NCBI GenBank assembly: GCA_022827345.1
Contig: JAJDTB010000032.1
Location: forward strand, 62,001 to 126,000
DNA from: Gemmatimonadota bacterium
GTDB taxonomy: Bacteria; Gemmatimonadota; Gemmatimonadetes; Longimicrobiales; Gaopeijiaceae
Direction of reading: 5' to 3'
DNA: 64,000 nt
Shown here: positions 8,955 to 13,665 of the stretch, piece after piece
Numbering within the stretch: position 1 is the first letter of the stretch
How the letters are laid out: each line of letters starts with the position of its first letter
Notes under the pieces: generated by a model
What the model saw: only the letters and a program-made list of their open reading frames with translations
Told to the model about the DNA's origin: nothing
Database searches by the model: none
Position numbers and translations under genes: made by a program

Positions 8955-9680
8955 ATGATCGAGCCGCTCGATGTGTTGGCGGTGATGGCTCACCCCGACG
9001 ACGCCGAGATCTTCTGCGGCGGGGCGTTGATCAAGTCGGCGGAGGCCGGGGAGCGGACCGGGGTGCTCGACCTCACGGCCGGCGAGGCCGGGTCGCAGGG
9101 GACCGTCGAGACGCGGGCCCGGGAAGCGTCGGAAGCGGCCGCGGTAATGGGGCTGGCCGATCGCCGTTGCGCCGGCCTCGCCGATTCAGGGCTGGTGAAC
9201 GATCAAGCGTCGAGGATCGTGGTGGCGGCGATGATTCGAACGCTCAGGCCGCGGGTTGTCGTGACCCACTGGACCGAGGGACGACACCCGGACCATCGGG
9301 CGGCAGCGTGTCTGGCCCGTGACGCGAGCTTTCTGGCCGGACTGAAGAAGCTCCCGGCGCCCGGGGCCCCGCACCGGCCGGACAAGATCGTCTACGCCCT
9401 CGCCTTCCGCGAGGATCCCGTCAAACCGACCTTCGTCGTGGACATCACGGACCAGATGGAACGGAAGCTCGAAGCGCTCGCCGCCTACGGTTCCCAGTTC
9501 CGGGGCAAGAGCGGCATCGGAGAGGTGTACCCCGGCGGTGACCGACCGCTCTTCGACCAGATCCGCAGCGTCCACGCGACGTACGGCTCGCTGATCAGGC
9601 GGGGCTACGGAGAACCGTACTGGACGGAGGAGACCGTCGAGACCGCTTCCCTGGGTACGCTCTCGGTCGTGAGCTTCTGA
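8955..9680 (+). CDS. bshB1: LmbE/PIG-L family deacetylase, probable bacillithiol biosynthesis deacetylase BshB1
   Basis: A 241-residue protein with the zinc-binding AHPDDAE motif at residues 11-17 and a second metal and catalytic segment, GRHPDHRAA. In bacillithiol synthesis this enzyme removes the acetyl group from GlcNAc-malate. The text GVLDLTAGEAGSQGT and SGIGEVYPGGDRPLFDQIR near the end fit BshB1 better than mycothiol or glycolipid deacetylases, by family memory. Neither bshA nor bshC is in the window, so the pathway assignment is inferred. It begins 13 bp after the last permease and may be cotranscribed with it. A perfect 13-bp hairpin follows the stop. Confidence 0.82.
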   Translation: MIEPLDVLAVMAHPDDAEIFCGGALIKSAEAGERTGVLDLTAGEAGSQGTVETRAREASEAAAVMGLADRRCAGLADSGLVNDQASRIVVAAMIRTLRPRVVVTHWTEGRHPDHRAAACLARDASFLAGLKKLPAPGAPHRPDKIVYALAFREDPVKPTFVVDITDQMERKLEALAAYGSQFRGKSGIGEVYPGGDRPLFDQIRSVHATYGSLIRRGYGEPYWTEETVETASLGTLSVVSF

Positions 9681-9688
9681 TGGAGCGA

Positions 9689-9724
9689 CTGGCCGGCGGG
9701 GCCTGGTGCGACCCCGCCGGCCAG
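9689..9724. terminator. Strong GC hairpin between convergent transcription units
   Basis: Two 13-base arms (9689-9701 and 9712-9724) are perfect inverted complements around a ten-base loop. The hairpin starts 9 bases after the bshB1 stop and faces the end of the minus-strand peptide operon. Neither side carries a clear T-run, so it may block transcription or protect both 3' ends rather than act as a classical intrinsic terminator. Confidence 0.6.
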
Positions 9725-9785
9725 TCATGGGAGTCAGCGGCTGACAGAAGGCGATTTCATGGTCGCCTGCCCAGCTGTCGTCGTG

Positions 9786-10022
9786 TCAGAAGCCTGCCCA
9801 CCCGCAGCAATACCCTCCACCGCACGGCTTGTCTGTACAGAAATCCCAGAACCAGATGTGCTTTACCTGGCGCAGGCCGGTGAGTTGTGCTTCCGCGGGG
9901 ATCGGAGCCACGATGCCGCCGGTCGCAGGGGCGGTCATTCCCGCCACCATTGCGACAGCGAAGACTCTCCAGGCGATCGCAATCCGTCCGCCGCGTCCAC
10001 TGCTTGCATCCATCTTCTTCAT
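9786..10022 (-). CDS. Small exported four-cysteine peptide B
   Basis: A 78-residue precursor behind an excellent Shine-Dalgarno (GGAGGT six bases before the ATG). It has a basic N-terminus and a hydrophobic core, and a probable signal peptidase site at APIPAEAQ (residues 39-46). That leaves a mature peptide of about 32 residues carrying FWD (58-60) and cysteines 62, 67, 72 and 73. It is clearly related to the peptide encoded just upstream: both keep the VAP-x-PA-x-AQ cleavage region, FWD, and a C..C..CC pattern. I know no named family for it. The thioredoxin-like neighbour suggests that the cysteines form or exchange disulfides outside the cytoplasm. A secreted structural, signalling or antimicrobial role are all open. 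Confidence 0.72.
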   Translation of the reverse strand: MKKMDASSGRGGRIAIAWRVFAVAMVAGMTAPATGGIVAPIPAEAQLTGLRQVKHIWFWDFCTDKPCGGGYCCGWAGF

Positions 10023-10047
10023 TTTTCTACCTCCATTGTTGTCATGA

Positions 10048-10308
10048 TCAGTAGAGCGGGTCGGGTTCCCGCTCGCAGCAAAGCGCCCACTCCGGGAAGC
10101 AGGTCATCAGGCAGATCCGTATGTCCCAGAAGCCGAATTGCATCGGTGGAAACGGTTCCGGCATCTGCGCCTGGGCCTGGCTGGCCGGTACGGGCGCCAC
10201 TTCGGGCGCCGCTGGCGCACCCAGCGTGAACGCCAGGGCGATAGCTACCGCGCCCAGTTGCAGCAGGCGCGGTCGACGCCTGCCACGTGTGTCATTCCTT
10301 GTGAACAT
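10048..10308 (-). CDS. Small exported four-cysteine peptide A
   Basis: An 86-residue precursor with GGAG eight bases before the ATG. An Arg-rich N-terminus is followed by a hydrophobic stretch (LGAVAIALAFTLGAPAAP) and a probable cleavage near ASQAQAQ (residues 42-48). The mature part, about 38 residues, carries FWD at 60-62 and cysteines 66, 70, 77 and 78 (C-x3-C-x6-CC) and ends in EPDPLY. It is a diverged paralogue of the next gene (C-x4-C-x4-CC), which starts 25 bp downstream. Two tandem, individually translated copies with good ribosome sites argue for real genes rather than chance frames. Function unknown. Confidence 0.72.
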   Translation of the reverse strand: MFTRNDTRGRRRPRLLQLGAVAIALAFTLGAPAAPEVAPVPASQAQAQMPEPFPPMQFGFWDIRICLMTCFPEWALCCEREPDPLY

Positions 10309-10365: not shown

Positions 10366-10923
10366 TCAAGATCCCGACTCCTCCGTCGGCCAATTCCGCG
10401 CCAATCGCGCGATGAGTTCCCGGGCGGTCAGCGAGTCGCGTCCCACACGCCCATTGTCGTCCAGCGGCCCTGACAGCACCGCGTGCACCCGGCCCTCCCT
10501 GCCCAGGAGGTAAAATGCGGGAATCGGTGCTGCCCCGAAGTCGCGCGCGTGCTCGCCGGGATGGCGCACCTCGACGCGTGCGGAAATCCGCTGCGCCTTC
10601 AGGAATCGGCCGACCATGTTCCCGTCTTGCACGCCCAGCTCGGAGACGGCCACCACGACGGTCTCGAAGGTGTCGCCAAGTTGCCGCTGAAGAGCCCGCA
10701 GCGAGCGGGCAGGCTCGGTGAGATCGCACCCCAGGCATGCTTCCGCGTCGATCACCCAGACCAGTGCGGGGCGGCTGCCTGAGACTCCCACACCGGTGAT
10801 TGCGTCTCCCGCGGCCAGCGCTGCCGGCGGCATTTGACTGCTCGGGCAAGCCGCCAGTGCCGCGACACAAGCCACTATCGTGCACAAGCGTGCGCCGGAG
10901 ACGGCCATGGCCCGCTCAAGCAT
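10366..10923 (-). CDS. Thioredoxin-fold lipoprotein with CxxC
   Basis: A 185-residue protein. The chosen ATG sits inside the stop of the upstream propeller gene (ATGCTTGA overlap). A lipoprotein signal ends at VAALAAC (Cys26). The mature part has a thioredoxin-like redox centre CLGC at residues 63-66, preceded by the strand ALVWVIDAEA, and a cis-proline segment APIPAFYLL (Pro135), both expected in thioredoxin, TlpA or ResA folds. It is thus a membrane-anchored thiol oxidoreductase of the cell envelope. Its position between a beta-propeller lipoprotein and two four-cysteine peptides makes those peptides its likely substrates; this is inferred from gene order. Confidence 0.8.
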   Translation of the reverse strand: MLERAMAVSGARLCTIVACVAALAACPSSQMPPAALAAGDAITGVGVSGSRPALVWVIDAEACLGCDLTEPARSLRALQRQLGDTFETVVVAVSELGVQDGNMVGRFLKAQRISARVEVRHPGEHARDFGAAPIPAFYLLGREGRVHAVLSGPLDDNGRVGRDSLTARELIARLARNWPTEESGS

Positions 10924-12154
10924 CGGTCTTGCGCCGTGCGACAAGCCAGTGGTTGGGCAGCACCGACTCCGGATCCTTGAAGTAGAACACGCCCTGATCG
11001 ACCGTGAGCAGCCGAGGCATGTTGGCGGCCTTCCAGACGGTCGCTCCCTCGGAGTCGATGATCAGAATGTCCCACACGGAACCGAATTCACGGGTCTGCA
11101 TGGACACCACCACCTTCTCGCCGCTATCCAGGACGAACGCCTTGTACACCTGCGTCAACGCGTCGAAGACGCGCTGGATCTCCCTTGGATCCGTCAACCC
11201 CCCGTTGCCGGCCGACAGTTCACCCATCGGTCGGGCAAGGGACAACGGCACGGCCGCGAGACGTTCCCCCGCAATGTCGAACTTGTACAGGGTGTCGGAG
11301 AGTGCCCAGACCGCCCAGATCGTGTCGCCGACCAACGTCGCATTCGCGGCGCTGAAGCTCACGGCGAAGGGGAGGGATGCTTCCGGTACGCCCATGGGCA
11401 GGAAACTGCGCTCGATCTCTCCGGATTCGCGATTCCAGATGTGCAGCAGTCGGGGCGGCCGCTCCGCAGGGTCGGCTCCCGCCAGGAGGAAACGTCCATC
11501 CCCCAGATCCTGCGCACTGAGGGCTCCGGGAACGGGAGATGGAATCACCTCGGGAGCAGGGTCGTTGTCGGCAGCGAAGAAGGTGATCCGCTGGGACATG
11601 ACGTCCGTGACGACAATCTCTCCACTACGGGTCCGGTGCGCCGTCATGGGAAAGAGGAACTCTCCCGGCCCCTCGCCCTTGGCTCCAAGAGTGCCCATCA
11701 GGGCTCCGTTCGTGCCGAACAGGTTCACCTGGGCTTCCATGGGCTCCGTGACCAGCAGCAGGCCGGTATCGTCCGATGTCACCATCGGTTGCACTACCAT
11801 GGCCTGATCATTCTCCTCAAGCACCAGCCGGTCCACGACTTCGAAGGCTTCCGCGAAGGTGGCCATGTCAACCGCCTCCTGGCCGGCCTCGCTTCCGGCT
11901 TGCGCATCCGACGCACCCGCGGAGTCGATCGCCGGGGAGTCATCGTCGGCGAAACCGCATGCCGTTGCCGAGGCGACGAGAATCGCAAGGAAGGTCCGTC
12001 CAGTGATTTCAATACATGGCAACCCGTAGCGGGTCGCCCAACCGGTCCTGGTTTGCTGGCGTCTTCGTACACGATTGCTCGTCACTTGCTGCTTGCTCCC
12101 TGGTTCGTCGTCGTGGATGGAGTTCTCGGCTCTTCTCTGAGCGCTTCGCCGCAT
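10916..12154 (-). CDS. 6-bladed beta-propeller lipoprotein
   Basis: The frame gives 412 residues from the ATG at 12154, which has GGAGG at ideal spacing. The hydrophobic lipoprotein signal (FLAILVASATAC, Cys66) lies late, so a GTG at 12085 or a TTG further on could be the true start. After an Asp/Glu/Ala-rich linker, propeller repeats follow, including GALMGTLGAKGEGPGEFLFP, the GxGPGEF turn typical of the 6-bladed/NHL-like propellers of Bacteroidota and Gemmatimonadota. Later blades repeat the pattern IVVTD, RITFF, LYKFD. Such propellers usually bind peptides, sugars or other ligands at the cell surface. It heads the operon with the thioredoxin-like lipoprotein and two cysteine peptides. Confidence 0.8.
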   Translation of the reverse strand: MRRSAQRRAENSIHDDEPGSKQQVTSNRVRRRQQTRTGWATRYGLPCIEITGRTFLAILVASATACGFADDDSPAIDSAGASDAQAGSEAGQEAVDMATFAEAFEVVDRLVLEENDQAMVVQPMVTSDDTGLLLVTEPMEAQVNLFGTNGALMGTLGAKGEGPGEFLFPMTAHRTRSGEIVVTDVMSQRITFFAADNDPAPEVIPSPVPGALSAQDLGDGRFLLAGADPAERPPRLLHIWNRESGEIERSFLPMGVPEASLPFAVSFSAANATLVGDTIWAVWALSDTLYKFDIAGERLAAVPLSLARPMGELSAGNGGLTDPREIQRVFDALTQVYKAFVLDSGEKVVVSMQTREFGSVWDILIIDSEGATVWKAANMPRLLTVDQGVFYFKDPESVLPNHWLVARRKTDA

Positions 12155-12238
12155 CGGCCGCCTCCGATAGCAGGGGAAGCCGAACGCGCACAAGGTAACC
12201 AGCCGTGGCGGGCGTTGGGATAGCTGGATGGGACAACT

Positions 12239-12294: not shown

Positions 12295-13665
12295 TCAGAC
12301 CCGCACGCCCTGTCCCCGGAGCCAGGACTCCATCACGCCCCGGATCTCAAGCAGGCGCTCCTCGGAACGGGCTTCGTATCGCGCCACGACGACGGGCTGG
12401 GTGTTGGACGCCCGAATCAGGCCCCAGCCGTCGCCGAACAGGACGCGCACACCATCCACGGCCACGACCTCGTAGCGGGCGGCGAAGTGGACGCACGCGC
12501 GTTCCACCACTTCGAACTTCTCCTCCTCCGCAACCTCGATGCGCAGTTCGGGGGTGGAAACATACCCGGGCAGCTCCGCGGTCATCGCCGAAAGCGGCCG
12601 GCTCGACGAAGATAGGAGTTCGATCAGCCGGCAGGCCGCGTATGGAGCGTCGTCGAACCCGAGGTAGCGGTCCGCGAAACAGATGTGGCCGGACAGCTCT
12701 CCGGCGATGCGCGCACCCAGTTCCTTCATCTTTTCCTTGATGAGCGAATGACCTGTCTTCCACATGACGGGCACGCCGCCCGCGCGCGCGAAGACCTCGG
12801 GAAGCACCTGCGAGCACTTCACGTCGAACACGAGCTGCTCGCCCTCGCCCTCACGGCGCAGAAGGTCAAGGCCGAAGAGAAGAAGGAGGATGTCCCCCCG
12901 GACGATGGCGCCCTGGTCGTCCACCACGCCGATCCGGTCCGCGTCGCCGTCGAAGCCGATACCGACATCCGCCCCGTGGCGCCGGACCTCGGCGATGAGA
13001 TCCTGGACGTACTCGTCGACGGTGGGATCGGGATGATGATTCGGAAAGGTGCCGTCGGATTCGCAGTACAACGGAATCACCTCCGCGCCGATCGCTTCCA
13101 GCAACTCCACCGCGACCACCGAACCGGTCCCGTTGCCGCAATCGACCACCACCTTCATTGGGCGCGGGAGGTTGAAGAGCCCGGCCACCTGCTCCACGTA
13201 GGCCGGAAGCACGTCGCGGTTTTCCAGCCCGCCCTCGCCGGATGCGAAGTCGCCCTCGCGGATGCGGCGAAGAAGATCCTGGATCGCGTCGCCGTAAACG
13301 GACGAGCGGGCCATCGTCATCTTGATGCCGTTGTATTCGGCCGGGTTGTGCGACCCCGTGATCTGCACCGCGCCGTCGGCCGAGAAGCTGTACTCGCTGA
13401 AGTAGGCGACCGGTGTCGGGACGGTTCCGAGCGCGATCACATCGCAACCCGTCGATCGCAGTCCCTTCACCAGTCCGGCACCGAGCGGCGGTGAAGACGG
13501 GCGATTGTCATGGCCGACAACGACGCGCGGACGGGGCGACGATGAGCGTCGGCGCAGTTCGGAACCGTACGCAGCCCCCACGGCCCGCGCCAGGTCAGGG
13601 TCCAGATCCTCCCCGACGATGCCGCGGATGTCGTATTGCCGGAAGATGTGCTCCCGCAGTGACAT
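12295..13665 (-). CDS. Phosphomannomutase/phosphoglucomutase (alpha-D-phosphohexomutase)
   Basis: A 456-residue four-domain phosphohexomutase of AlgC/ManB length. The phosphoserine loop is ITGSHNPAEYNGIK (Ser105), the metal loop is GFDGDADRIGVVD, the sugar-binding loop GELSGHICF is present, and the C-terminal phosphate-binding stretch ends in RASNTQPVVVARYEA. The enzyme interconverts hexose 1- and 6-phosphates for polysaccharide and LPS precursors. The active-site loop reads TGSHNP where many family members have TASHNP; the serine is kept. It starts 24 bp after nuoN and is probably the last gene transcribed from the nuo promoter. Confidence 0.92.
   Translation of the reverse strand: MSLREHIFRQYDIRGIVGEDLDPDLARAVGAAYGSELRRRSSSPRPRVVVGHDNRPSSPPLGAGLVKGLRSTGCDVIALGTVPTPVAYFSEYSFSADGAVQITGSHNPAEYNGIKMTMARSSVYGDAIQDLLRRIREGDFASGEGGLENRDVLPAYVEQVAGLFNLPRPMKVVVDCGNGTGSVVAVELLEAIGAEVIPLYCESDGTFPNHHPDPTVDEYVQDLIAEVRRHGADVGIGFDGDADRIGVVDDQGAIVRGDILLLLFGLDLLRREGEGEQLVFDVKCSQVLPEVFARAGGVPVMWKTGHSLIKEKMKELGARIAGELSGHICFADRYLGFDDAPYAACRLIELLSSSSRPLSAMTAELPGYVSTPELRIEVAEEEKFEVVERACVHFAARYEVVAVDGVRVLFGDGWGLIRASNTQPVVVARYEARSEERLLEIRGVMESWLRGQGVRV

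What the first reader, a model, noticed from the sequence alone, without database searches (positions are those of the whole stretch)
9786..10308. Two tandem paralogous exported peptides with a conserved FWD..C..C..CC core
Two small minus-strand frames each have a good ribosome site, a signal peptide ending in a VAP-x-PA-x-AQ cleavage region, FWD, and exactly four cysteines (C66, C70, C77, C78; and C62, C67, C72, C73). Spacings differ (C-x3-C-x6-CC and C-x4-C-x4-CC), so they have diverged while the pattern was kept. I recognise no named family. They look like secreted disulfide-bonded peptides of about 30-40 residues, which may be signals, toxins, antimicrobials or surface components.
Basis: partly seen in the sequence, partly recalled or inferred. 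Interest (0 to 1): 0.72.

Follow-up and report, generated by a model that had tools for sequence, protein, structure and literature searches.

The report
Exported cysteine peptides with propeller-thioredoxin partners
Two small exported peptides with four fixed cysteines belong to an unnamed peptide family that, across the bacterial phylum Gemmatimonadota, is almost always encoded beside a predicted envelope-anchored propeller protein and usually a thioredoxin-like protein, and the set is gained and lost together, so it is probably one undescribed working unit.

Summary
The two frames are real genes and part of something larger. In the window they close a minus-strand, operon-like cassette: six-bladed propeller lipoprotein (DUF5128-type), TlpA/ResA-like lipoprotein (C-L-x-C), PEP1, PEP2. 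I aligned 35 peptides: all four cysteines are invariant, the 'FWD' is not. PEP1-type copies always have C-x3-C and PEP2-type copies C-x4-C (8/8 genomes), so this is an old, maintained tandem pair. Close pairs show dN/dS of about 0.3-0.4. The motif scan gave 47 peptide ORFs in 854 kb, at propeller loci wherever checked, against 0 in 2.56 Mb of simulated sequence. Peptide, propeller and thioredoxin are linked in 29 catalogued cassettes over several families of Gemmatimonadota, in different gene orders. Propeller and thioredoxin trees agree (Mantel r 0.92), one genome fuses them, and the closest relative has lost the whole cassette, leaving a 102-bp scar. No sequence family searched covers the peptides. 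Best reading: secreted, probably two-disulfide peptides, oxidised or guarded by the thioredoxin-like lipoprotein and bound by the propeller. The output (signal, antagonist or surface part) is unknown. Closest analogue, from memory: Bacteroides NVEALA peptides with BF3164 propellers; NVEALA membership was tested and not met.

The parts
10916..12193 (-). PROP: six-bladed (NHL/DUF5128-type) beta-propeller, predicted lipoprotein (FLAILVASATAC/GFAD); ORF 425 aa as listed, true start probably closer to the lipobox
   Evidence: Pfam DUF5128 E=2.3e-5, over cut-off; profile matches solved NHL propellers to E=2.8e-35; lipobox scan
10366..10944 (-). TRX: TlpA/ResA-like thioredoxin-fold protein with C-L-G-C site, predicted lipoprotein (VAALAAC/PSS); overlaps the end of PROP by 29 nt
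   Evidence: profile matches ResA E=9e-5; AF2 model pLDDT 73, Foldseek best hits are TlpA/ResA/YkuV-type proteins; lipobox
10048..10308 (-). PEP1: exported four-cysteine peptide, C-x3-C type (86 aa)
10051..10167 (-). PEP1 predicted mature part (39 aa, QMPEP...DPLY) if cut after A45-Q-A47
   Evidence: sequence inspection; inference
9786..10022 (-). PEP2: exported four-cysteine peptide, C-x4-C type (78 aa)
9789..9887 (-). PEP2 predicted mature part (33 aa, QLTGL...WAGF) if cut after A43-E-A45
   Evidence: sequence inspection; inference
9687..9727 (.). Strong hairpin between the convergent cassette and PIG-L gene, likely a shared transcript end
   Evidence: -42.6 kcal/mol for 9680-9732, z -6.8
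12295..13665 (-). Flank: phosphomannomutase/phosphoglucomutase-like gene (not part of the cassette; marks the site)
   Evidence: same neighbour in most same-genus loci; named from its sequence by inspection
8955..9680 (+). Flank: PIG-L deacetylase (not part of the cassette; marks the site)
   Evidence: Pfam PIG-L E=2.4e-26; present in 23/23 genomes of the genus

Best explanation
PEP1 and PEP2 are small Sec-exported peptides whose four cysteines most likely form two disulfides. They work as a unit with two envelope lipoproteins encoded in the same operon: a TlpA/ResA-like thiol-disulfide protein that makes, corrects or protects the peptides' disulfides, and a six-bladed propeller that is their cognate binding partner (receptor or scaffold). 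The tandem peptides are old, separately maintained variants, as expected if one partner accommodates more than one ligand. Shown: real conserved genes, invariant cysteines, purifying selection, tight linkage, joint gain and loss, a natural PROP-TRX fusion, a thioredoxin-type fold. Inferred: signal cleavage, lipid anchoring, disulfides, and direct PROP-peptide contact. Unknown: the biological output.
For: 35 peptides with all four Cys invariant; paralogue-specific spacing kept in 8/8 genomes; dN/dS about 0.3-0.4 in close pairs, mature part more conserved than the leader in most wider comparisons; 29 catalogued cassettes with PROP and TRX, and peptide ORFs at each, gene order variable between clades; same-genus genomes have PROP and TRX together (15) or lack both as strong orthologues (8) while PIG-L is in 23/23; nearest relative G009 lost the cassette, keeping 102 bp of TRX end plus the PEP1 ribosome site; PROP/TRX trees congruent, Mantel r 0.92, p 1e-4; PROP-TRX fusion ORF in G013; in two genomes first found by the peptide profile alone, G259 and G399, the peptides also sit beside propeller genes.
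Against: No experiment; disulfides unproven; the peptide AF2 model is poor (pLDDT 53). TRX lost its first active-site Cys in 3 of 29 cassettes (Tyr or Gly; second Cys 29/29), which argues against a plain two-cysteine oxidase in those. Some peptide-propeller pairs have no detected TRX (L169/L170, L203, L209, L085), so TRX is not obligatory. Linkage does not prove binding. G259 keeps a peptide beside a truncated PROP/TRX remnant.
Confidence: 0.55

Rival explanations
1. The peptides are small structural subunits of an envelope complex with the propeller, like the disulfide-rich small subunit of methylamine dehydrogenase beside its propeller subunit, whose folding needs the thioredoxin-like MauD (analogy from memory). 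They are never released as ligands.
For: Same three kinds of part (propeller, cysteine-rich small protein, thioredoxin-like helper); joint loss and fusion of PROP and TRX; C-terminal tails often ending in a hydrophobic residue.
Against: No cofactor-making gene recognised in the loci seen; peptides vary in number (1-3) and little beyond the Cys is conserved, unusual for a catalytic subunit.
Confidence: 0.2
2. The peptides are secreted antagonists (bacteriocin-like) or kin-recognition signals, with PROP as the matching immunity protein or receptor.
For: Tandem diversified peptides, patchy presence within a genus, and cassettes that may have moved between families (G001b/G013b/G019b group with f4 sequences in both trees); other propeller paralogues paired with peptides of different cysteine frameworks.
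Against: The cassette sits at one conserved chromosomal site through most of the genus; PEP1 mature part is acidic; no PADLOC match; no dedicated exporter.
Confidence: 0.2
3. The peptides bind a metal or thiol-reactive compound through the C-x3/4-C...CC cluster and pass it to the propeller or TRX protein.
For: Four invariant cysteines; TlpA/ResA-type partner.
Against: No transporter or metal regulator was seen to recur next to the cassettes; no conserved His, Asp or Glu near the Cys.
Confidence: 0.05

Closest known systems
NVEALA peptides with BF3164-type six-bladed propeller lipoproteins in Bacteroidales (Pfam PF14055; pairing recalled from memory)
   Same: Small exported peptides with an EA-type cleavage-like motif and C-terminal cysteines, beside a six-bladed propeller of the DUF5128-like kind.
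   Different: No peptide here matches NVEALA in Pfam scans and nothing in the window's genome passes the NVEALA cut-off; here a TlpA/ResA-like lipoprotein is usually part of the set and the cysteine frame is C-x3/4-C-x3-9-CC.
TlpA/ResA/StoA thiol-disulfide oxidoreductases
   Same: TRX fold and profile similarity.
   Different: C-L-x-C without the usual preceding Trp or internal Pro, first Cys sometimes absent, linked to peptides and a propeller.
Methylamine dehydrogenase small subunit plus propeller subunit plus MauD (from memory)
   Same: Propeller, disulfide-rich small protein and thioredoxin-like helper encoded together.
   Different: Analogy of parts only; no sequence match seen. Peptides here have 4 Cys, vary in number, and no cofactor-maturation genes were recognised.
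NHL-repeat propellers (TRIM-NHL, Brat, peptidyl-glycine alpha-amidating enzyme)
   Same: PROP profile matches them.
   Different: Generic fold match; no C-terminal Gly (amidation substrate) is conserved in the peptides.

Membership tests
NVEALA (PF14055) | Profile score above the curated cut-off | tested here: not met
   No NVEALA match in Pfam scans of the 2 window peptides or 35 homologues; no match over the cut-off in the whole genome, while one control genome passes it
NVEALA/BF3164 pairs | Peptide gene adjacent to a six-bladed propeller lipoprotein | tested here: met
   says 'works like', not 'is a member'. The BF3164 pairing itself is from memory
DUF5128 six-bladed propeller (PF17170) | Profile score above the curated cut-off | tested here: met
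   24.2 bits against 22.9
TlpA/ResA-like thioredoxin fold | Thioredoxin fold by profile and structure | tested here: met
TlpA/ResA-like thioredoxin fold | C-x-x-C active site | tested here: inconclusive
   26 of 29 have both Cys; 3 have lost the first
Leader-conserved RiPPs | Conserved leader, variable core, modifying enzyme nearby | tested here: not met
   Mature part is more conserved than, or similar to, the leader in most pairs; no modifying enzyme recognised in the gene tables
Known anti-phage defence systems | PADLOC profile match | tested here: not met
Two-disulfide secreted peptide | Disulfides formed in the mature peptide | not testable with these tools
   Needs mass spectrometry

The most novel reading that the evidence does not exclude
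A transferable peptide-plus-receptor module of Gram-negative bacteria: exported disulfide peptides, their own disulfide catalyst and a cognate propeller receptor in one operon, with further propeller paralogues in the same genome paired with peptides of other cysteine frameworks, forming a repertoire of private peptide-receptor channels.
Probability: 0.25. Interest if true: 0.8.

Novelty: new variant of a known kind. Interest (0 to 1): 0.62.

Why it matters
Genes this short are easily skipped by annotation, and this family has no name in the libraries searched. The cassette gives a testable handle on two neglected things at once: what the many DUF5128-type propellers of Gemmatimonadota do (47 matches in this genome), and what their small exported cysteine peptides are for. 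If the Bacteroides analogy holds, peptide-propeller pairing would be a strategy used in more than one phylum.

Tried and rejected
Pfam, NCBIfam, PHROGs, PADLOC and PDB sequence searches for the peptides: nothing meaningful (weak hits such as PorA 0.18 or DUF6520 0.015 over 35 queries are at chance level). AF2 of PEP1 with 8 sequences: pLDDT 53, not used. A 14-sequence TRX alignment was too diverse for a contig scan; five sequences found 6 loci with organism names. Paper searches for NVEALA, DUF5128 and similar terms found nothing relevant. Dismissed: chance ORFs, pseudogenes, leader-conserved RiPP, typical cationic antimicrobial for PEP1 (charge -4). Not done: homology test against actual NVEALA proteins (no Bacteroides sequences could be fetched), co-folding of PROP with a peptide, Ka/Ks of PROP and TRX.

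Full report
What is there. The minus strand carries, in transcription order, a propeller gene (PROP, 12193-10916), a thioredoxin-like gene (TRX, 10944-10366, overlapping PROP by 29 nt), PEP1 (10308-10048, 57 nt downstream) and PEP2 (10022-9786, 25 nt downstream), closed by a strong hairpin at about 9727-9687 before the convergent PIG-L gene. PROP passes the Pfam cut-off for DUF5128 and its profile matches solved NHL propellers. TRX has no Pfam match, but its profile matches ResA (E about 1e-4) and its AF2 model (pLDDT 73) is closest to TlpA/ResA-like proteins. A lipobox scan is positive for 20/28 PROP and 21/29 TRX sequences; most of the others also show an A/G-C end after a hydrophobic run. 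Lipid anchoring is a prediction.

The peptides are a family. The TRX protein was searched in 98 related genomes and its surroundings scanned for small ORFs. Nearly every same-genus hit is followed by one to three small signal-bearing ORFs ending in C-x3/4-C-x(n)-CC. Later searches added other families of the order and class. In 35 aligned peptides the four Cys are invariant, a Pro at the end of the hydrophobic core is near-invariant and little else is fixed. 'FWD' is not conserved. Eight genomes carry both a PEP1-type and a PEP2-type gene; C1-C2 spacing is 3 in all PEP1-type and 4 in all PEP2-type copies. A third type (CLPxxC...CCDxFxPPG) occurs in G001, G004, G016 and G019.

Selection and chance. 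NG86 on close pairs: G018/G006 dN 0.12, dS 0.41; G001/G016 0.19/0.59; G016/G004 0.20/0.61; PEP3-type G016/G019 0.10/0.31. PEP2-type pairs are weaker (0.23-0.31 against 0.39-0.56). Short sequences make these rough, but the frames are maintained. The mature part is more conserved than the leader in most wider comparisons (for example G001/G017: leader pN 0.55, mature 0.23). The motif scan found 47 ORFs in 854 kb (a few from overlapping loci) and 0 in 2.56 Mb of Markov sequence. The fetched set is enriched for cassettes by design, so the count is not a genome-wide rate. The control shows that such ORFs are not chance products of GC-rich DNA.

A unit. (i) Within the genus, PIG-L is in 23/23 genomes; strong TRX and PROP orthologues co-occur in the same 15 genomes, and the other eight lack TRX and have at most weak PROP matches. 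(ii) In G009, the closest relative by PIG-L (95%), the mutase gene and PIG-L are neighbours, with a 102-bp remnant of the TRX end and PEP1 ribosome site between them: the cassette was deleted. (iii) Gene order changes (peptides first in f4, G243 and other loci) while linkage stays. (iv) PROP and TRX trees agree over 29 cassettes, including second cassettes in G001, G013 and G019, which group with f4 sequences in both (Mantel r 0.92, p 1e-4). This suggests transfer or old duplication as a set; shared vertical descent also contributes to r. (v) G013 has PROP and TRX as one ORF (L035:7615-9351). (vi) A search with the peptide profile alone found two loci not used in building it: G259 (beside a truncated PROP/TRX remnant) and G399 (two tandem peptides between two propeller genes). 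G130, at similar E-value, was a false hit.

Mechanism. The likeliest reading is an exported peptide with two disulfides, a dedicated thiol-disulfide lipoprotein and a propeller binding partner. TRX keeps the second Cys of C-L-x-C in 29/29 and the first in 26/29, so in some lineages it may bind or shield a thiol rather than catalyse a full oxidation cycle. Peptide-propeller pairs with other cysteine frameworks or with no TRX found (L169/L170, L209, L085, L203) suggest that peptide-propeller is the core and TRX an addition. The output (signal, antagonist, structural part) is not settled by sequence.

Known relatives. From memory the nearest system is the NVEALA peptide/BF3164 propeller pair of Bacteroidales. 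NVEALA membership was tested and not met; the functional analogy stands as a lead. The open-access library holds no paper with NVEALA or DUF5128. Related loci with names are MAGs labelled Gemmatimonadota/Gemmatimonadetes, one Longimicrobiales.

Noticed in passing
whole genome G000: 47 matches to the DUF5128 six-bladed propeller in one 4.8-Mb genome, often two or more in a row: a large unexplained expansion.
   Followed up: partly
L086:211-5788 (G000:C34): A second, different set in the same genome: exported Cys-rich peptide (95 aa), a 767-aa protein starting with a carboxypeptidase-regulatory-like repeat, a propeller, and a short protein with SSSCGWSNLP that looks thioredoxin-like.
   Followed up: partly
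L085:5215-6689 (G000:C41) and L209:6824-8337 (G000:C24): Two further exported four-Cys peptides with other cysteine frameworks directly beside propeller genes.
   Followed up: partly
L104:3419-6618 (G239): Two exported peptides with C-x3-C pairs between a TRX-like and a propeller gene, followed by ABC transporter genes.
   Followed up: no
L202:3858-4133 (G259): PROP N-terminus joined in frame to the TRX C-terminus by an apparent internal deletion, peptide retained: decay, or an assembly error.
   Followed up: no
L036:8564-12321 (G021): A fragment of the PIG-L gene plus an intact copy, with an integrase/transposase-like ORF between them next to the cassette.
   Followed up: no
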